A stretch of DNA of 64,000 bases. Origin: Salibaculum griseiflavum. GTDB taxonomy: Bacteria; Pseudomonadota; Alphaproteobacteria; Rhodobacterales; Rhodobacteraceae. This document shows positions 15,782-37,302 of this stretch, piece after piece. Numbering within the stretch: the stretch's first letter is position 1; the number at the start of each line of letters is the position of its first letter. The position numbers and the translations under genes were made by a program. The DNA lies in contig NZ_QETF01000004.1 of NCBI RefSeq assembly GCF_003129565.1, positions 62,001-126,000 on the forward strand. Reading direction: 5' to 3'. A model generated the notes under the pieces. That model was not told the DNA's origin and searched no databases. It saw nothing but the letters and a program-made list of their open reading frames with translations.

Positions 15782-15793
15782 TTGTGATCACAA
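15782..15793. promoter_or_regulatory. Palindromic operator candidate before the GntR/FCD gene
   Basis: TTGTGATCACAA, a perfect 12-bp palindrome ending six bases before the ATG at 15800. Binding here would block transcription or initiation of the regulator gene. The same core GTGATCAC occurs as pairs upstream of sucC and sdhC in this window, which suggests the GntR/FCD protein binds all of these sites. Confidence 0.6.
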
Positions 15794-19549: not shown

Positions 19550-21079
<1,530 letters not shown>

Positions 21080-21083
21080 TGGA

Positions 21084-24047
21084 TTAGTTCCCTTCGATGG
21101 TCAGCGCGTCGTTCACGAGCGCCTCTTGTTCTGCCTTGTGGCGCGAGGCCAGGCCCGTGGCGGGCGAGGCGGCGGCGGCGCGGCCCGCATAGACGGGGCG
21201 CGTGTGCTTGGCCTTGATGCGGGTCAGCACCCATTCGATGTTCGGCTCCATGAAGAACCAGGCGCCCTGGTTCTTGGGCTCCTCCTGGCACCAGACCATG
21301 TCGGCATTGGGGAAGCGCTGAAGCTCTTTCACCGCGGATTGCGCCGGGAACGGGTAGAACTGCTCGAACCGCATCAGGTAGATGTCGTCGATGCCTCGGC
21401 GGTCGCGTTCTTCCAGCAGGTCGTAATAGACCTTGCCGGAACACATGACGACACGCTTGATCTTGTCATCCGCGACCAGCTGGGTGTCAGAATTGCCGTA
21501 TTGCGCATCGTCCCACAGCACCCGGTGGAAGCTGCTGCCTTTCTGGAATTCCTCGGCCTTGCTGACGGCCAGCTTGTGGCGCAGCAGGGATTTCGGCGTC
21601 ATCAGGATCAGCGGCTTGCGGTAGGTGCGGTGCAATTGACGGCGCAGGATGTGGAAATAGTTGGCCGGCGTGGTGCAGTTGGCCACGATCCAGTTGTCCC
21701 CGCCGCTCATCTGCAGGAACCGTTCCAGCCGGGCCGAGGAGTGCTCCGGCCCCTGGCCCTCGAAACCGTGGGGCAAGAGGCAGACAAGACCCGACATGCG
21801 CAGCCATTTCGATTCACCGGAACTGATGAACTGGTCGAACATGATCTGGGCGCCGTTGGCGAAATCGCCGAACTGGGCTTCCCACAGAACAAGCGCGTTG
21901 GGTTCGGCCAGCGAATAGCCGTATTCGAAGCCGAGCACCGCGTATTCCGACAGCATCGAGTCGATGACCTCGTAGCGGGCCTGCCCGTCACGAATGTGGT
22001 TGAGCGGGAAATAGCGTTCCTCGGTCTCCTGGTTGACGATGCCGGAATGGCGCTGGCTGAACGTGCCGCGGGTGCTGTCCTGGCCGGCCAGCCGCACCGG
22101 GTAGCCTTCGGTCATCAGGCTGCCGAAGGCCAGCGCCTCGGCCGTGGCCCAGTCGAAGCCCTGGCCGGTCTGGAACATCTTCTGCTTGGTTTCCAGAAGG
22201 CGGCCCACCGTCTTGTGCATGGGAAAGCCGTCGGGGACGGTCGTCAGCGCCTTGCCGATTTCGTCAAAGGTCTTTTTCTTGATGGCGGTTTCGCCGCGCT
22301 GGTAGTCTTCTTGCTTGCGGTCCATGTGGGACCACTTGCCGTCCAGCCAGTCGGCCTTGTTGGGCTTGTAATCCTTGCCGGCCTCGAACTCATCATTGAG
22401 GTAGCTCTGGAACCCGGCCTTCTGTTCCTCGACCTCGCCCTCGGGGATCAGCCCGTCCTTGACCAGCCGTTCGGTATACAAGGTCAGCGTGGTCTTCTGC
22501 TGCTTGATCTTCTTGTACATGATCGGGTTGGTGAACATCGGTTCATCGCCCTCGTTATGGCCGAAGCGGCGATAACAGATCATGTCGATGACCACGTCCT
22601 TGTGGAACTTCTGGCGGAACTCGGTGGCGACCTTGGCGGCGTGGACCACGGCCTCGGGATCGTCGCCGTTCACGTGGAAGATCGGCGCCTCGACCATCAG
22701 CGCGATATCCGTGGGATAGGGCGAAGAGCGCGAGAAATGCGGCGCGGTGGTAAAGCCGATCTGGTTGTTGACGACCAGATGCATCGTGCCACCGGTGCGG
22801 TGGCCGCGCAGGCCCGACAGGCCAAAGCCCTCGGCCACCACACCTTGCCCGGCAAAAGCCGCATCCCCATGCAGCAGGATGCCCATCACCGCCGTGCGGT
22901 CGGTGTCATTCAGCTGGTCCTGCTTGGCGCGGACCTTGCCGAGGACAACCGGGTTCACGGCTTCAAGGTGCGACGGGTTCGCCGTCAGCGACAGGTGCAC
23001 GGTGTTGCCGTCGAATTCCCGGTCGCTGGAGGCGCCGAGGTGGTATTTCACGTCGCCGGAGCCATCCACGTCCTCGGGCTTGAAGCTGCCGCCCTGGAAT
23101 TCGTTGAAGATGGCGCGATAGGGTTTGCCCATCACGTTGGCCAGGATGTTCAGGCGCCCGCGGTGGGGCATGCCGATGACGATTTCCTTCAGGCCCAGCT
23201 GACCGCCGCGCTTGATGATCTGCTCCATGGCCGGGATCAGCGCTTCGCCGCCGTCCAGGCCGAACCGCTTGGTGCCCATGTATTTGACGTGCAGGAACTT
23301 CTCGAAGCCTTCGGACTCGACCAGCTTGTTCAGGATTGCCTTTCGGCCATTCTGGGTGAAGGCGATTTCCTTGCCCAGACCCTCGATCCGCTCCTTCAGC
23401 CAGGCGGATTCCTCGGGGTTGGAGATGTGCATGTATTGCAGGGCAAAGGTGCCGCAATAGGTGCGCTGGACGATGGCCAGGATCTCGCGCATGGAGGCCA
23501 CTTCGAGCCCCAGCACATTGTCGATGAAGATCGGCCGATCCATGTCCTTTTCGTCGAACCCGTAGGATTTCGGGTCGAGCTCGGGATGCGGGGTCTGGTC
23601 GCGCATGCCCAGCGGATCGAGATCCGCCACAAGGTGGCCGCGAATCCGGTAGGCCCGGATCAGCATCAGGGCCCGGATCGAATCCAGAACGGCATGGCGC
23701 ACCTGCTCCTCGGTGATGGCAATGCCCTTCTCATCGGCCTTGGCCTTGATCTTGTCCCCGGCAGCCTTCGCGTCCTTTGGGTCGGCGGGCCATTGGCCAT
23801 CGAGTGCGGCGGTCAGGTCGTCGGCCGGCTGCGGTGGCCAATCGTTGCGGGCCCAGGATGGGCCGGCCGCTTCCGCGCGGGCCTCCGAGGGGGCGTCCCC
23901 CAGCGCCTTGAAGAACTCGCGCCAACTTTCATCGACCGCGCCGGGATTCTCGGCGTATCGCGCATAAAGCTGCTCGATATATTCCGCATTGTGCCCCTGC
24001 ATGAAGCTGGAGGCGTGGAAGACGTCGTTGGGGGATTGGTCGGTCAT
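21084..24047 (-). CDS. odhA: 2-oxoglutarate dehydrogenase E1 component
   Basis: ThDP-dependent decarboxylation of 2-oxoglutarate and succinylation of the E2 lipoyl group in the TCA cycle. It is a 987-residue single-chain E1. The N-terminal E2-binding segment reads [19 protein letters not shown], and the conserved blocks [27 protein letters not shown] and [11 protein letters not shown] are present in order. The length is normal for the family. The start overlaps the stop of a 60-residue membrane protein (ATGA), and odhB follows after 4 nt. Confidence 0.97.
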
Positions 24048-24226
24048 TTTGACGATCCTTCGATGCAGCAGGGTGCGTGGCCTGCAGATGCAAGTGATCC
24101 GGGCGACTGCGCCCGGACCTGTGCGGCGATGATGACAAGACCCAGCACCAGGAACAGGGCCGCGAACAGGCGGGGGGCCAGGGCCTCCCGCCGGAGCACG
24201 CGGATATCCCGGTGCGGCCGCTGCAT
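24044..24226 (-). CDS. Small single-span membrane protein coupled between sucD and odhA
   Basis: A 60-residue protein starting at the ATG at 24226. Its A is shared with the sucD stop (TGATG), and its own stop overlaps the odhA start (ATGA). The N-terminus is basic (HRDIRVLRREALAPR), followed by one hydrophobic helix (LFAALFLVLGLVIIAAQV) and a short tail with a CC pair. The double overlap argues that it is translated; it may mainly act as a translational relay or be a small membrane partner. I do not recognise a family. Confidence 0.6.
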   Translation of the reverse strand: MQRPHRDIRVLRREALAPRLFAALFLVLGLVIIAAQVRAQSPGSLASAGHAPCCIEGSSK

Positions 24227-25110
24227 CACTTGCCGATCGCTTCCATCACGGCCTCGCCCAGGGTGGCGGGGCTGTCGGCGACGACGATGCCGGCGGATTT
24301 CATGGCCTCGATCTTGCTTTCGGCGTCGCCCTTGCCGCCCGAGACGATCGCGCCGGCATGGCCCATGCGGCGGCCCGGAGGCGCGGTGCGACCAGCGATG
24401 AACCCGGCGACAGGCTTCCAGCGGCCCTTCTTCTTCTGTTCGGCCAGGAATTCGGCGGCTTCTTCCTCGGCGGTGCCGCCGATCTCGCCGATCATGATCA
24501 TGGACTGCGTCTCGTCATCGTCCAGGAACATGTCCAGCACGTCGATATGCTCGGTCCCCTTGATCGGGTCGCCGCCGATGCCGACGGCGGTGGACTGGCC
24601 CAGCCCCATATCCGAGGTCTGCTTGACGGCCTCGTAGGTCAGCGTGCCGGAGCGGCTGACGACGCCGACCGACCCGCGCTTGTGGATATGGCCCGGCATG
24701 ATGCCGATCTTGCAGGCCTCGGGGGTGATGATGCCGGGGCAGTTCGGCCCGATCAGGCGCGACTTCGACCCTTCCAGAGCGCGTTGCACCTTCATCATGT
24801 CCAGAACCGGGATGCCCTCGGTGATGCAGACGATCAGTTCCATCTCGGCGTCGATCGCTTCGAGGATCGAGTCGGCGGCGAAGGGCGGCGGCACGTAGAT
24901 GACGGAGGCGTTCGCCTCGGTCTTGGCCTTGGCTTCGTGGACCGAGTTGAAGACCGGCAGGTCCAGGTGGGTCTGTCCGCCCTTGCCCGGTGTCACGCCG
25001 CCAACCATCTTGGTGCCATAGGCAATGGCCTGTTCCGAGTGGAAGGTGCCCTGCGAGCCGGTGAAGCCCTGACAGATCACTTTGGTGTTTTCGTCTACAA
25101 GAATGGCCAT
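24226..25110 (-). CDS. sucD: Succinyl-CoA synthetase (ADP-forming) alpha subunit
   Basis: Substrate-level phosphorylation step of the TCA cycle (succinyl-CoA to succinate), partner of SucC. It has 294 residues, with an N-terminal CoA-binding Rossmann fold ([17 protein letters not shown]). The phosphorylated histidine motif [14 protein letters not shown] is near residue 251. Unusually, it is separated from sucC by two genes (a methyltransferase and a glycosyltransferase family 25 protein) on the same strand. It ends in a TGATG overlap with a small membrane protein gene. Confidence 0.96.
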
Positions 25111-25143
25111 GGATTGCCTTTCACTTTCTTTGGTGTTTCGCGG

Positions 25144-25962
25144 CTAGGTCGAGCCGACCGGGGTAAGGGAAACGGTGAGCCGCGCTAGGCGCGCCTGTCC
25201 CGTGATAAGTTGCCAGATATGCCGTGGCAGGTTGCGCAACTGCGCCCAGCCACGCAGCCAGGCCTGCCGACGCAGGTCGCGTTTGTCGGCGGCCTTCTTA
25301 TGCGTCCGCACCGTCTGCTCATGGCCCGGATCGTTGCCTTGGCCGACCAAGCCAGGGGAGACTTGGTAGATGGATGCCTCGCGGGCCACGCCCGACACAT
25401 AAGGGTCGAATATGAAGGAGTCCGTGGACAAGTTGATCCGATCAACTCGGAGCATCCGCTGCGCATGTTGGCGCGTGACGAGATATCCAGCGGCGCCAGG
25501 ATGCCGTGAATAAAGACGCGCGATAGAGCGGCCTCGGAATTCGGAAGCGCGGCGCGACAGGATGTGAACCATGCGCGTATCTGGCCAGACTTCCAACTTC
25601 ACGATATCGGCGTCGGCGGGCCACCATGAAAGATCTTCCAGCCATTCGCCCATTTCTGGTGCGATATACACGTCGTCTTCCAGCACGAGTGCGATATCCG
25701 CAGCAGTCGCCAAGAATTCTTGCCAGATGTTCTGGTGACTCCAGGTGATAGCCATATTCGTGACTGGCACGATGCCCCAAGGCCCGAAATCATCAAAGCG
25801 GGCAAGTAATGCCGCTTCACCGACTTCGGCGGCGTCCACGGCTGGCAGAAATTCACCGTTTATACCCGCACCTGCGAGTTCGCGTTCCATGGTTTCGCGG
25901 CGGATCACCGCCCGATCCAAGTTGACCACAAAGGTGGCGACTTTCGCAGGCGTATTCGTCAT
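25144..25962 (-). CDS. Glycosyltransferase family 25 (LPS/lipooligosaccharide type) protein
   Basis: A 272-residue protein starting [18 protein letters not shown], with the GT25 opening strand and the LVLEDDVYIAP motif near residue 90 that carries the acidic metal-binding residues. The ATG at 25962 has GGAGGTGGGGG upstream and overlaps the methyltransferase stop (ATGA); a longer in-frame start at 26034 is rejected. It sits between sucC and sucD, an unexpected place for a glycan gene. The region looks somewhat less GC-biased than the suc genes around it, compatible with insertion into the operon. Confidence 0.78.
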   Translation of the reverse strand: MTNTPAKVATFVVNLDRAVIRRETMERELAGAGINGEFLPAVDAAEVGEAALLARFDDFGPWGIVPVTNMAITWSHQNIWQEFLATAADIALVLEDDVYIAPEMGEWLEDLSWWPADADIVKLEVWPDTRMVHILSRRASEFRGRSIARLYSRHPGAAGYLVTRQHAQRMLRVDRINLSTDSFIFDPYVSGVAREASIYQVSPGLVGQGNDPGHEQTVRTHKKAADKRDLRRQAWLRGWAQLRNLPRHIWQLITGQARLARLTVSLTPVGST

Positions 25963-26645
25963 GCCCCCACCTCCTCGGCCGCTTTCGCCGCAGCGCGGGC
26001 GTCGAGCACGGCGATGATCTGCTCGCGCGTCCACAGCCCCATGGAGCGGTGCTTGCGGCCCTCGTCGCGCTCGGCGATGTCGGCGGGCAGGTCGTCTGCG
26101 GTTTCATGGATCATGTCGATGGGGGCGGGAAAGTTGAACGGCGCGGCCATCGGGTTGAACTTGGTGAAGCCGCCGTTCTTGCCCAGTTTCTTGTTGGCCT
26201 TGATGTGATGCATCGTGGTCAATAGCAGGGGCGTTCCCGAGGCGACGAAGTTTTCCAGGAATTTCCAGCGCAGCCAGAATTTCAGGTGAAACAGCACATC
26301 GCGCGCCATCATCATGTCGGCCTTGGGCAGCGGGTCCGAGGTGATATCGAGCAGAATGAAGTCCCGGTTGGGGCCACCATGGGCCGCGCGCACCTCCTCG
26401 ACCACGGCATCGGCGATATCCCCGCCGATATACTGGATATCGCCCAGATCGACCGAGGCCATCCAGTTCCAGTCGCCGCAGGGCGCGTCGAGGAACGTGC
26501 CGACACCGTGCTTTTCGAGAAACGCGGGAAGCTGCGCCCGAAGACGTTCGGTGAAAGCCAACGTCGATCCGGCGCCCGAGCGGCTTTCGTCCTGCTGCCC
26601 GTGCCAGATCTTGTCGTTGAATTCCTTGCGCAGGTCGTCCCGCAT
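25959..26645 (-). CDS. Class I SAM-dependent methyltransferase
   Basis: A 228-residue protein. The SAM-binding motif I reads [12 protein letters not shown] near residue 50, and motif II region includes [20 protein letters not shown] resembles the post-motif catalytic segment of small-molecule or glycan methyltransferases. The ATG at 26645 is only 4 nt after the sucC stop, so the two are tightly co-translated; longer upstream frames run through sucC and are rejected. Coupled to the GT25 gene (ATGA), the pair probably modifies a glycan, but the substrate is unknown. Confidence 0.78.
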
Positions 26646-26649
26646 TGCC

Positions 26650-27843
26650 TCAGCCCTTGACCGCCTTGACGATCTTCTGGGCGCCGTCCTTGAGGTCGTC
26701 GGCCGCGATGACGTCCAGACCGGAGGTGTTGATGATCTCCTTGCCCTTCTCGACATTCGTGCCTTCCAGGCGCACGACCAGCGGCACTTGCAGGCCGACT
26801 TCCTTTACAGCGGCCACCACGCCCTCGGCGATCACGTCACAGCGCATGATGCCGCCGAAGATGTTCACCAGGATGCCTTTGACGTTGGGGTCGGAGGTGA
26901 TGATCTTGAACGCCTCGGTGACCTTTTCCTTGGTCGCGCCGCCACCCACGTCGAGGAAGTTGGCAGGCTCCGCGCCGTAGAGCTTGATGATGTCCATGGT
27001 CGCCATGGCCAGGCCTGCGCCGTTCACCATGCAGCCGATCTCGCCATCGAGCGCGATGTAGTTGAGGTCGTATTTCGACGCCTCGAGCTCTTTCGGATCT
27101 TCTTCGGTGGTGTCGCGCAGCTCGCCGATATCGGCGTGGCGGTAGATCGCGTTGCCGTCGAAGCCCATCTTGGCGTCAAGGCATTTCAGGTCGCCCTTGT
27201 CGGTCACGATCAGCGGGTTGATTTCCAGCTGCTCCATGTCCTTCTCGACGAACATCTTGTAGAGCGTGCCCATCAGCGCGACGCATTGCTTGACCTGCGG
27301 GCCTTCCAGCCCCAGCGCAAAGGCGATGCGGCGACCGTGGAACGGCTGGTAACCGGTGGCCGGATCAACCGAGAAAGACAGGATCTTCTCGGGGTTGGTC
27401 TCGGCGACCTCTTCGATATCCATGCCGCCCTCGGTGGAGGCGACGAAGGACACCCGCGACGTGCCGCGGTCGACCAGCAGGGCGAGGTAAAGCTCACGGT
27501 CGATGCCGGAACCGTCCTCGATATAGATGCGGTTGACCTGCTTGCCGGCGGGGCCGGTCTGCTTGGTCACCAGGGTGCGGCCCAGCATTTTCTTGGCTTC
27601 GTCGGCAGCTTCTTCCACCGATTTGGCCAGGCGCACGCCGCCCGCTTCGCCGGCACTGTCTTCCTTGAAGGACCCCTTGCCGCGTCCGCCCGCATGGATC
27701 TGCGCCTTGACCACCCAGAGCGGGCCGTCCAGTTCGCCGGCCTTGGTCTTGGCCTCTTCCGCTTTCAGGACAACGCGCCCGTCGCTGACCGGTGCCCCGT
27801 AAGAACGCAGCAGCGCCTTAGCCTGGTATTCGTGGATATTCAT
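26650..27843 (-). CDS. sucC: Succinyl-CoA synthetase (ADP-forming) beta subunit
   Basis: Carries the ATP-grasp nucleotide-binding domain of succinyl-CoA synthetase. It has 397 residues and starts [19 protein letters not shown], the classic SucC N-terminus. The glycine-rich HAGGRGKG loop is near residue 53, and the C-terminal [12 protein letters not shown] and [12 protein letters not shown] blocks are present. The upstream region holds a tandem pair of GTGATCAC palindromes. It is the first gene of the suc-odh-lpd run on the minus strand, after a terminator behind mdh. Confidence 0.97.
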
Positions 27844-27938: not shown

Positions 27939-27950
27939 TTGTGATCACAC
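27939..27950. promoter_or_regulatory. GTGATCAC operator candidate, sucC copy 1
   Basis: TTGTGATCACAC, 11 of 12 positions identical to the palindrome before the GntR/FCD gene. It is centred about 101 bp upstream of the sucC start and 20 bp from the second copy, i.e. two helical turns on the same DNA face. Confidence 0.55.
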
Positions 27951-27958
27951 CGGAATAA

Positions 27959-27970
27959 GCGTGATCACAA
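27959..27970. promoter_or_regulatory. GTGATCAC operator candidate, sucC copy 2
   Basis: GCGTGATCACAA, 10 of 12 positions identical to the GntR-gene palindrome, with the 8-bp core intact. It is followed four bases later by TGGTATACAA. Confidence 0.55.
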
Positions 27971-28153: not shown

Positions 28154-29227
<1,074 letters not shown>

Positions 29228-33114: not shown

Positions 33115-33126
33115 GCGTGATCACAG
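33115..33126. promoter_or_regulatory. GTGATCAC operator candidate, sdhC copy 1
   Basis: GCGTGATCACAG with the 8-bp palindromic core GTGATCAC intact. It is centred about 172 bp before the sdhC start and 21 bp from copy 2, nearly the spacing seen at sucC. Confidence 0.55.
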
Positions 33127-33135
33127 TGACTTTTC

Positions 33136-33147
33136 ATGTGATCACAA
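33136..33147. promoter_or_regulatory. GTGATCAC operator candidate, sdhC copy 2
   Basis: ATGTGATCACAA, 11 of 12 positions identical to the palindrome before the GntR/FCD gene, about 151 bp before the sdhC start. Confidence 0.55.
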
Positions 33148-34075: not shown

Positions 34076-35881
34076 ATGGCTGAATACGAATACGAAACGC
34101 ATGAATACGATGTGGTCGTGGTTGGCGCCGGTGGCGCCGGACTGCGCGCCACGTTGGGCATGGCCGAACAGGGCCTGCGCACGGCCTGTATCTCGAAGGT
34201 GTTCCCGACGCGCTCGCACACGGTTGCCGCGCAGGGGGGCATCGCCGCCTCGCTCGGCAACATGGGCCCCGACAGCTGGCAATGGCACATGTATGACACC
34301 GTCAAAGGGTCGGACTGGCTGGGCGACACGGACGCCATGGAATACCTCGCCCGCGAGGCGCCCAAGGCGGTCTACGAGCTGGAGCACTACGGCGTGCCCT
34401 TCAGCCGCACCGAAGAGGGCAAGATCTACCAGCGTCCCTTTGGCGGCCATACCACCGAATTCGGCGAAGGCCCCCCGGTGCAACGCACCTGTGCCGCCGC
34501 CGACCGGACCGGCCACGCCATCCTGCACACGCTCTATGGTCAGAGCCTGAAGCAGAAGGCGGAATTCTACATCGAGTATTTCGCCATCGACCTGCTGATG
34601 TCCGAGGACGGCCAGTGCGAAGGCGTGCTGTGCTGGAAGCTCGATGATGGCACCATGCATGTCTTTGCCGCCAAGATGGTCGTTCTGGCCACCGGCGGCT
34701 ATGGGCGCGCCTATTTCAGCGCCACCAGCGCCCACACCTGCACCGGTGATGGCGGCGGCATGGTGGCCCGCGCGGGTCTGCCGCTTCAGGACATGGAATT
34801 CGTGCAGTTCCACCCCACCGGCATCTACGGCGCCGGCTGCCTGATCACAGAGGGCGCGCGCGGCGAGGGCGGCTACCTGACCAATTCCGAAGGCGAGCGG
34901 TTCATGGAGCGCTACGCCCCCAACTACAAGGACCTGGCCCCGCGCGACTATGTCAGCCGCTGCATGACCATGGAAATTCGCGAAGGCCGCGGCGTGGGGG
35001 CCAATGGCGATCATATCCACCTGAACCTCAACCACCTGCCTGCCGAGGCACTGGCCGAACGCTTGCCGGGCATTTCCGAAAGCGCCCGGATCTTCGCCGG
35101 TGTGGACGTGACCAAGGAACCGATCCCGGTCATTCCCACCGTGCATTACAACATGGGCGGCGTGCCGACGAATTACTGGGGCGAGGTTCTGAACCCGACC
35201 GAGAAGGACCCCAACGCCATCGTGCCCGGGCTGATGGCCGTGGGCGAGGCGGGCTGTGCCAGCGTGCACGGGGCCAACCGCCTCGGCTCCAACTCGCTGA
35301 TCGACCTCGTGGTCTTCGGCCGCGCCGCCGCGATCCGCGCGGGTGACGTGGTGGATCGCGCCAAGGCGGTGCCGACACCCGCGAAGGCGGCGATCGACAA
35401 GGCCTTCGACCGGTTCGACGGGCTGCGCCATGCCAATGGTGGCACGCCGACTGCCGAGCTGCGCCTGGAGATGCAGAAGACCATGCAGCAGGATGCCGCT
35501 GTCTTCCGCACCGACGAAACCCTGAAGGCCGGTGTCGAAAAGATGAAGGGCGTTGCCGCCAAGATGGACGACCTGCATGTCACCGACCGCAGCCTCGTGT
35601 GGAACAGCGACCTCATGGAAACGCTGGAGCTGGACAACCTGATGCCCAATGCGCTGGCTACGATCTTCGGCGCAGAGGCTCGCAAGGAAAGCCGCGGCGC
35701 CCATGCCCACGAGGATTACGCCGAACGCGACGACAAGACCTGGCGCGTCCACACGATTTCGCGGGTCGAGGGCAATAAGGTCGACCTGTCCTATCGCCCG
35801 GTCATCGAGGCGCCGCTGACCAAGGAAAAAGAAGGCGGCATCAACCTCAAGAAGATCGCGCCCAAGGAACGGACCTTCTGA
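34076..35881 (+). CDS. sdhA: Succinate dehydrogenase flavoprotein subunit
   Basis: Oxidises succinate to fumarate with covalently bound FAD. It has 601 residues. The FAD fold is [12 protein letters not shown], and the FAD-linked His is in [16 protein letters not shown] near residue 45. The catalytic Arg region lies near 280 ([14 protein letters not shown]), and the C-terminal domain is normal. The stop overlaps the next lipoprotein gene (TGATG), so sdhA and sdhB are not adjacent here. Confidence 0.98.
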
Positions 35882-36162
35882 TGTTGCGCGTCGTGCCCGT
35901 TCTGCTGGCCCTTGCGGCCTGCGCCCCGCAGCCGATCAGCCCCGAACGGGCGGCGGAAATCTGCGAGCAAAGGGCGCGGGCCGCGCAAGGGCCGACGGGC
36001 CGTGTTACGATCGGAGCCAGCAGCAGCGACGGACCCTTTGCCGGTGCCGAGATCGGGCTGTCGGCCGACTACCTGGCCGGGCGCGACCCGGTCGAGGTCT
36101 ACGAAGAGTGCGTGTTCGAGCGCACCGGGGCGGCCCCGATCCGGCCTCCGGTGCTGCGCTAG
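35881..36162 (+). CDS. Small lipoprotein encoded between sdhA and sdhB (first)
   Basis: A 93-residue protein whose ATG shares its A with the sdhA stop (TGATG). The N-terminus [16 protein letters not shown] has a lipobox LAAC, so it is probably exported and lipidated at Cys14. The remainder is small and polar with two further Cys (near 28 and 79) and a GASSSDGPFAGAEIGLSADYL segment. I do not recognise a family. Its coupling to sdhA implies co-expression with complex II. Confidence 0.75.
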   Translation: MLRVVPVLLALAACAPQPISPERAAEICEQRARAAQGPTGRVTIGASSSDGPFAGAEIGLSADYLAGRDPVEVYEECVFERTGAAPIRPPVLR

Positions 36163-36179
36163 AAACAAGGAGTATGAAG

Positions 36180-36500
36180 ATGAAAAGAATCATTCTGTCC
36201 CTGATCGCCGCAACCGCGCTTGCGGGGTGTGACATGCCCGGCTTCATGGCCGACCCGACCGCGACCACCGCGACCGACCTCGTCACCGCCTCGATGGTAG
36301 GCACCGAATTGTCCGGCGGCATCGTCGTGACCGAACGCATCGCCCGCCCCCTGGCCGAATGTGTGGCAGAGCACGCCACCGACGAGGAACTGGCCCAGAT
36401 CGTCGCGGCCACGGATGATGCCACCCGCAATGCCATCACCAGCGCCGTGCTGGCCCGCCCCGAAGCCATCAGCTGCGCCACTGCAGCCCTGACCGCCTGA
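36180..36500 (+). CDS. Small lipoprotein encoded between sdhA and sdhB (second)
   Basis: A 106-residue protein with a lipoprotein signal [19 protein letters not shown] (lipobox LAGC, lipidated Cys17). The start at 36180 is chosen because AAGGAG lies seven bases before it; the ATG at 36174 is too close. The rest is Ala/Thr-rich with two further Cys (AECVAEH and ISCATAAL). It sits 22 nt before sdhB. Unknown family. With the preceding gene it makes two lipoproteins inside the sdh operon. Confidence 0.75.
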
Positions 36501-36522: not shown

Positions 36523-37302
36523 ATGGTCCAGCTGACCCTTCCCAAGAACAGCCGGATGACCACCGGCAAGACCTGGCCCAAACCCGAGGGCGGGACGAAC
36601 CTGCGCAAGGTGCAGATCTATCGTTGGGACCCCGATGACGGGCAGAACCCGCGCCTGGATACCTACTGGGTGGACATGGATGAGTGCGGACCGATGGTTC
36701 TCGACATCCTGATCAAGATCAAGAACGAGATCGACCCGACCCTGACCTTCCGCCGGTCCTGCCGCGAAGGCATCTGTGGGTCCTGCGCGATGAATATCGA
36801 CGGGATCAACACGCTGGCCTGTATCTACGGCGCCGACGAGATCAAGGGCGATATCAAGATCTACCCGCTGCCGCACATGCCGGTGGTCAAGGACCTGATC
36901 CCGGATCTCACGCATTTCTACGCCCAGCATGCCAGCATCATGCCCTGGCTGGAAACCAAGACGAACCGTCCCGCCAAGGAATGGAAACAGTCCATCGAGG
37001 ACCGCAAGAAGCTGGACGGTCTTTATGAATGCGTGATGTGCGCCAGTTGCTCGACGGCCTGCCCGTCCTATTGGTGGAACGGTGATCGCTACCTCGGGCC
37101 GGCAGCGCTTCTGCATGCCTATCGCTGGATCATCGACAGCCGCGACGAGGCGACGGGCGAACGGCTGGACCAGCTTGAGGATCCGTTCAAGCTCTATCGG
37201 TGCCACACGATCATGAACTGCGCCAAGACCTGCCCCAAGGGTCTGAACCCGGCCGAGGCCATCGCGCATATCAAGAAGATGATGGTGGAACGCCGGGTCT
37301 GA
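36523..37302 (+). CDS. sdhB: Succinate dehydrogenase iron-sulfur subunit
   Basis: Relays electrons from FAD to ubiquinone through three Fe-S centres. It has 259 residues. The [2Fe-2S] ligands are in CREGICGSC...C near 78-97, the [4Fe-4S] ligands in [11 protein letters not shown] near 170, and the [3Fe-4S] ligands in [11 protein letters not shown] near 228. AAAGGAG precedes the ATG. Last sdh gene; a ZIP-like transporter gene follows after 4 nt. Confidence 0.97.

What the first reader, a model, noticed from the sequence alone, without database searches (positions are those of the whole stretch)
25144..26645. A methyltransferase and a GT25 glycosyltransferase inserted between sucC and sucD
sucC and sucD encode two subunits of one enzyme and normally stand next to each other. 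Here two genes unrelated to the TCA cycle separate them on the same strand. The methyltransferase starts 4 nt after sucC and overlaps the GT25 gene by ATGA, so the insertion was kept in a way that keeps translation linked. Either a glycan-modification pair was captured by a strong promoter, or the two enzymes act on something tied to growth rate.
Basis: partly seen in the sequence, partly recalled or inferred. Interest (0 to 1): 0.62.

Follow-up and report, generated by a model that had tools for sequence, protein, structure and literature searches.

The report
Variable gene slot between sucC and sucD
Two genes that probably modify a cell-surface sugar sit between the two genes of a central-metabolism enzyme; they are one example of a swap-in, swap-out gene slot that most members of this bacterial family carry at exactly this spot and that appears to be refilled by DNA recombination, without any transposase or integrase.

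Summary
It is not a one-off capture of a pair. In 111 family genomes the sucC-sucD gap runs from 7 to 3,159 nt, over 250 nt in 86; in 80 other alphaproteobacterial families it is 60 nt or less in 73. The inserts are packed co-directional genes, mainly diverse exported two-cysteine proteins plus methyl-, glycosyl- and sulfotransferase-like enzymes. Turnover is fast: within this genus one relative is empty, one has the MT with only a GT25 remnant, one has unrelated cargo. Six inserts hold a truncated sucD start between cargo blocks; in one genus the scarred locus equals the sum of two sister loci. This points to recombination through the sucC/sucD flanks. The GT25 belongs to a subfamily whose 12 best hits all lie in this slot. 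Cargo often starts 4-5 nt after the sucC stop, where sucD starts in empty operons. Extra genes in sucCD of Roseobacter strains were reported in 2012 (PMC3305630). New here: breadth, cargo types, slot-private families, scars. The function of this MT+GT25 is inferred, not shown.

The parts
26650..27843 (-). sucC, upstream boundary of the slot (succinate-CoA ligase beta)
   Evidence: NF001913 588 bits against cut-off 370
26654..26658 (-). AAGGG Shine-Dalgarno-like motif inside the last sucC codons, ahead of the first cargo gene
   Evidence: sequence; AAGG within the last 15 nt of sucC in 99 of 100 family genomes
25959..26645 (-). class I SAM-dependent methyltransferase (P0001, 228 aa), first cargo gene
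   Evidence: motif I DAPCGD at residues 53-58; AlphaFold pLDDT 89.7 and methyltransferase fold matches; dN/dS about 0.1 against G245
25959..25962 (-). ATGA stop-start overlap of MT and GT25
   Evidence: sequence
25144..25962 (-). GT25 glycosyltransferase (P0002, 272 aa), second cargo gene, slot-private subfamily
   Evidence: PF01755 64 bits; EDD motif invariant; solved GT25 relatives; 12 best family-wide hits in the same slot
25111..25143 (-). 33-nt spacer with the sucD ribosome-binding region; shared with G245
24226..25110 (-). sucD, downstream boundary of the slot (succinate-CoA ligase alpha)
   Evidence: NF004230 468 bits against cut-off 336
21084..24047 (-). sucA, downstream in the same operon
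19550..21079 (-). sucB; the sucA-sucB junction is the never-invaded control junction (1-21 nt in 59 of 59)
28154..29116 (-). mdh, upstream neighbour
   Evidence: PF00056/PF02866

Best explanation
The region between sucC and sucD is a recombination-refilled cargo slot of Rhodobacteraceae, and the MT+GT25 genes are its present filling in this genome. SHOWN: the slot is at a fixed position, its content varies even within genera, the cargo is co-directional, and some families were found nowhere else in 244 genomes. STRONGLY SUPPORTED: incoming DNA carrying cargo plus sucD recombines with the resident operon through sucD, and sometimes sucC, homology. When the upstream end joins illegitimately inside sucD, the resident cargo is kept and a truncated sucD start is left as a scar, which builds multi-gene inserts; deletions empty the slot again. 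INFERRED: natural transformation or the gene transfer agent (RcGTA packages about 4.5 kb) delivers the DNA. SUPPORTED: cargo often lands 4-5 nt after the sucC stop, where sucD starts in empty operons, behind a Shine-Dalgarno motif inside sucC, so it can be expressed on the TCA transcript without a promoter of its own. INFERRED: the MT and GT25 methylate and glycosylate a surface glycan (LPS or exopolysaccharide type), consistent with the exported proteins and sulfotransferase-like enzymes in other fillings; the selection is probably for surface variation.
For: Slot: gaps of 7-3,159 nt, 86 of 111 over 250 nt, against 6 of 80 outside the family, Fisher p 1e-23; one genome per genus 34/48, p 6e-14. 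sucA-sucB 1-21 nt in 59/59 as control. Coding-model calls put 113 of 114 cargo ORFs on the sucC strand. Genus: empty (8 nt) in G244, MT plus GT25 remnant in G245, sulfotransferase plus lipoprotein in G083. Genus g22 has different inserts at about 91-95% flank identity. Scars: sucD 5' fragments in L066, L070, L074, L078, L079 (E 1e-12 to 1e-57) and G033; in L078 sucD[1-133] is fused to about 36 nt of sucC 3' end and then an MT. L066 = L018 bases 1-756 (ungapped, 89%) + L057 bases 463-1921. sucA 5' scars in the next slot. Slot-private families: cluster 0, 33/33 hits; GT25 subfamily, 12 of the 12 best. Landing site. GTA gene in this genome; RcGTA fragment size (PMC9690577).
Against: Only 6 of roughly 90 filled slots checked show a scar, so most fillings give no direct trace of how they arrived, and the window's own filling has none. 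The GT25 tree largely follows the flank tree, so for GT25 an old slot resident with many losses fits as well as slot-to-slot transfer. No experiment links any cargo to surface glycans; most cargo families are unknown. The vehicle (GTA, transformation, conjugation) is not shown. Gap counts use genomes whose sucC and sucD were both listed, ranked by similarity to the query, so they are not a random sample.
Confidence: 0.72

Rival explanations
1. One reading: a functional MT+GT25 pair was captured once, as a unit, by the strong sucCDAB promoter, and kept translationally coupled.
For: Tight spacing and ATGA overlap; both genes share the likely glycan theme; GT25 GC3 (0.67) is unlike that of the operon (0.85-0.88).
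Against: The pair occurs together only here; MT and GT25 have different partners elsewhere. MT GC3 (0.84) matches the host, so the two genes have different composition. Most of the family has other cargo in the same place.
Confidence: 0.1
2. Old vertical residents: the slot held several genes in the family ancestor and lineages differ by loss, with little recombination between slots.
For: Cluster 0 and the GT25 subfamily were found only in the slot; the GT25 tree broadly matches the flank tree; cargo is shared between very close genomes.
Against: Scars with sucD 5' ends and a sucC 3' end show additive joining; 48 singleton ORFs and 18 families are too many for one ancestral 3-kb insert; genus g22 has many different fillings; the MT family also occurs outside the slot.
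Confidence: 0.17
3. A dedicated mobile element (integron-like cassette, IS or phage satellite) uses the sucC end as an attachment site.
For: Fixed landing position; modular cargo.
Against: No integrase or transposase was among the Pfam hits of the 164 cargo proteins; no recurrent repeat at the boundaries; scars are sucD or sucC pieces of varying length, not fixed att sites; the same kind of insert occurs at sucD-sucA with sucA scars.
Confidence: 0.05

Closest known systems
Extra genes in sucCD, sucAB-sucCD and sdhCDAB of Roseobacter strains (Christie-Oleza et al. 2012, PMC3305630)
   Same: Same junction; variable, poorly conserved genes; co-transcription of SPO_PG006 with sucCD shown by RT-PCR.
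   Different: That work compared eight genomes, called it exclusive to Roseobacter strains, and in the passages read here gave no cargo classes, landing rule, slot-private families or recombination scars.
Homology-facilitated illegitimate recombination (PMC3240628)
   Same: Linear DNA integrates with a homologous crossover at one end and an illegitimate joint at the other, as the sucD and sucA scars imply.
   Different: Described as an experimental route in competent bacteria and E. coli; here it would be a recurrent natural route at one operon junction.
Integron gene cassettes (from general knowledge)
   Same: Works like a cassette array in effect: a fixed site behind an existing promoter and exchangeable promoterless genes.
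   Different: No integrase or attC sites found; homology of the flanking genes appears to do the work.
Glycosyltransferase family 25 (PF01755; solved relatives 8xc8, 8xlz)
   Same: Domain, EDD motif, length.
   Different: Forms a subfamily so far seen only in the sucC-sucD slot; acceptor unknown.

Membership tests
GT25 glycosyltransferase (PF01755) | score above the curated cut-off over the domain | tested here: met
   64.4 bits against 24, residues 10-182, profile 4-197 of 199
GT25 glycosyltransferase (PF01755) | acidic metal/nucleotide-sugar motif | tested here: met
   E95 D96 D97 invariant in seven slot homologues
GT25 glycosyltransferase (PF01755) | sugar-transfer activity | not testable with these tools
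   needs an enzyme assay
class I SAM-dependent methyltransferase | Rossmann-like methyltransferase fold | tested here: met
   pLDDT 89.7; Foldseek top hits are methyltransferases, best E 1.9e-7, TM about 0.4-0.6
class I SAM-dependent methyltransferase | motif I and acidic motif II | tested here: met
   D53, P55, C56, G57, D58 invariant and D76 nearly so in 29 homologues
A named Pfam or NCBIfam methyltransferase family | score above a curated cut-off | tested here: not met
   P0001: 0 families in both libraries; a homologue reaches only a sub-threshold Methyltransf_25 match
Variable sucCD insertion of Roseobacter (PMC3305630) | non-conserved genes between sucC and sucD on the same strand | tested here: met
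Variable sucCD insertion of Roseobacter (PMC3305630) | co-transcription with sucCD | not testable with these tools
   shown by others for R. pomeroyi only; no sigma-70-like promoter or terminator match inside the insert
Integron cassette array or other site-specific element | integrase and recurrent attachment sites | tested here: not met
   no integrase among Pfam hits of cargo; no recurrent boundary repeat
Homology-facilitated illegitimate recombination | one homologous and one illegitimate joint | tested here: inconclusive
   consistent in scarred loci: L066 against L018 and L057, L078 sucD::sucC joint; the window's own filling has no scar, so it is untested for this genome

The most novel reading that the evidence does not exclude
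A core-metabolism operon junction serves as a recombinase-free cassette site: a gene pool private to it (GT25 subfamily, cluster-0 two-cysteine exported proteins) circulates between genomes only by recombination of the conserved sucC/sucD flanks, probably through gene transfer agents, which puts surface-variation genes under TCA-cycle expression.
Probability: 0.4. Interest if true: 0.75.

Novelty: new variant of a known kind. Interest (0 to 1): 0.57.

Why it matters
It would be a clear natural case of how operons take up and shed genes without mobile-element enzymes, with a readable scar of the event. It names gene families of unknown function whose only known address is inside a core metabolic operon, and gives a testable landing rule (Shine-Dalgarno inside the upstream gene). 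It also ties surface-glycan and exported-protein variation to a growth-linked transcript in an abundant marine family.

Tried and rejected
Chance or assembly artefact: rejected, another genome of the genus has the same MT junction. MT+GT25 as a conserved unit: rejected. Recent origin of GT25 in this genome alone: not supported, about 80 nt of its 3' end survive in G245 (alignment score 68, best of 500 shuffles 41). Fold of cluster 0 as a clue to function: no significant match (best E 0.05), not used. Context of MT homologues elsewhere (L124, L126): no clear polysaccharide locus, so no functional support from there. Promoter and terminator scan: nothing inside the insert, weak evidence only. 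The 3.2-kb ceiling of inserts fits RcGTA capacity minus homology arms but was not tested; no weight put on it. Simple ORF picking on GC-rich inserts gives false antisense ORFs; strand counts therefore come from the codon-trained calls, which miss atypical genes.

Full report
Observation. The reported arrangement is exact. On the minus strand the operon reads mdh, sucC, MT, GT25, sucD, sucA, sucB. The MT starts 4 nt after the sucC stop, overlaps the GT25 gene by ATGA, and 33 nt separate GT25 from sucD. SucC and SucD pass their equivalog cut-offs, GT25 passes PF01755. The MT matches no Pfam or NCBIfam model, but its predicted structure (pLDDT 89.7) is a class I methyltransferase, and motif I (DAPCGD) is conserved in 29 homologues. 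Between this genome and its relative G245 the MT has dN 0.042 and dS 0.435, so it is under purifying selection.

It is a slot, not a single insertion. I took sucC and sucD positions from 244 family genomes. In the 111 where both were listed on one contig the gap runs from 7 to 3,159 nt, median 646, and exceeds 250 nt in 86. In 80 genomes from other alphaproteobacterial families (one per family) it is 60 nt or less in 73 and over 250 nt in 6 (Fisher p 1e-23, or 6e-14 with one genome per genus on our side). In 59 operons read in full, mdh-sucC and sucD-sucA also vary (213-2,283 and 57-1,744 nt), while sucA-sucB is 1-21 nt in all. So insertion is junction-specific.

Prior work. Christie-Oleza and colleagues reported in 2012 that Roseobacter strains carry poorly conserved extra genes inside sucCD, between sucCD and sucAB, and in sdhCDAB, and showed by RT-PCR that the one in R. 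pomeroyi sucCD is co-transcribed (PMC3305630). No later paper on this was found in the library. The existence of the slot is therefore not new.

What fills it. One hundred junctions were read. Codon-trained calls give 114 ORFs, 113 on the sucC strand. A broader set of 164 forms 18 shared families and 48 singletons; some of these ORFs will be spurious, given the GC content. Recognisable enzymes are SAM methyltransferases including an FkbM type, GT25, and sulfotransferase or sulfotransferase-like proteins (the naming of the 7-member sulfotransferase-like family rests on its N-terminal motif and at most one weak hit). Most of the rest are exported or lipoprotein-like; of 90 such proteins 51 have exactly two cysteines after residue 32, usually 41-68 residues apart. 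Profile comparisons link several of these families weakly, so one hyperdiverse superfamily is possible but not proven.

Turnover. At about 91-95% flank identity the genomes of genus g22 carry different fillings. In the window's own genus, G244 is empty with an 8-nt gap, G245 has the MT (92% identical) but only about 80 nt of the GT25 3' end, and G083 has a sulfotransferase-like gene and a two-cysteine lipoprotein. GT25 was thus probably present before G000 and G245 split and was later deleted in G245.

Mechanism. Five of 87 filled slots hold a fragment of the sucD 5' end inside the insert, as a rule between two cargo blocks (47-133 nt, E 1e-12 to 1e-57); a sixth was seen in G033. In L078 sucD bases 1-133 are fused to about 36 nt of the sucC 3' end, then an MT and the intact sucD follow: the trace expected if a 'sucC-MT-sucD' piece joined into a resident sucD. 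In genus g83, G225 equals the sum of its sisters: bases 1-756 match G180 (sucC, small gene, first 60 nt of sucD) without a gap at 89%, and bases 814-2272 match G189 (GT25, sucD) at 88.5%. Three sucD-sucA gaps carry the analogous sucA 5' scar. This is what homology at one end and illegitimate joining at the other would leave (PMC3240628). No integrase or transposase appears among the cargo hits. The window's own filling has no scar, so its route is inferred by analogy. A gene transfer agent is a plausible vehicle: this genome encodes a GTA_TIM protein and RcGTA carries about 4.5 kb (PMC9690577), but this is not tested.

Slot-private families. A profile of the seven slot GT25 proteins finds 12 genomes with E of 4e-83 or better among 244, and all 12 lie between sucC and sucD, including five not used to build it (G033, G027, G233, G181, G231); the next hit, G125, is elsewhere. 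Cluster 0 (exported, two cysteines) has 33 hits, all in the slot, 12 of them in genomes not used for the profile (for most of these 12 only one flanking gene was checked). The GT25 tree broadly follows the flank tree, so long residence with loss and slot-to-slot exchange both remain possible for it. The MT family is different: it also occurs outside the slot and in distant phyla.

Landing rule. In the empty operons read, sucD starts 4-5 nt after the sucC stop (7-8 nt after its last codon), and AAGG lies within the last 15 nt of sucC in 99 of 100 genomes. In filled slots 52 of 86 have an ORF of at least 60 aa starting within 12 nt of the sucC stop, with a peak at 4-5 nt, against 25% for random positions. 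The first cargo gene therefore often takes over sucD's translation-start context. The MT here does so at 4 nt.

Function. For this filling I propose methylation and glycosylation of a surface glycan. The basis is family knowledge of GT25 (LPS-type transfer), the co-occurring cargo classes, and probable co-expression with the TCA operon. A palindrome pair TGTGATCACA stands ahead of both sucC and sdhC in the window, consistent with shared control. None of this is direct evidence of function.

Noticed in passing
35881-36500 (+), between sdhA (34076-35881) and sdhB (36523-37302): Two small lipoprotein-like ORFs (35881-36162 and 36171-36500) without Pfam hits separate sdhA from sdhB: the same kind of intra-operon filling in the second TCA operon of the window, as reported for R. 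pomeroyi sdhCDAB.
   Followed up: partly
27940-27969 and 33116-33146: Pairs of TGTGATCACA palindromes about 20 bp apart stand upstream of sucC and of sdhC (5 matches in the window, 1.4 expected): a candidate shared operator of the two TCA operons. A further perfect copy is at 15783-15792.
   Followed up: partly
G000:C34:60221-60916, just left of the window (L133:10222-11067): A second GT25 gene, distant from the slot subfamily, next to a GH42 beta-galactosidase gene.
   Followed up: no
L172, L195, L211 (sucD-sucA gaps): Truncated sucA starts inside sucD-sucA inserts: the next junction of the operon shows the same scars.
   Followed up: partly
slot inserts of L016-L115: Exported proteins with two cysteines about 50 residues apart are the commonest cargo and may form one hyperdiverse superfamily; no known fold matched a cluster-0 member significantly.
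   Followed up: partly
G314, G327, G249, G255, G307, G248: Six alphaproteobacterial families outside Rhodobacteraceae also have sucC-sucD gaps of 294-796 nt; their contents were not read.
   Followed up: no
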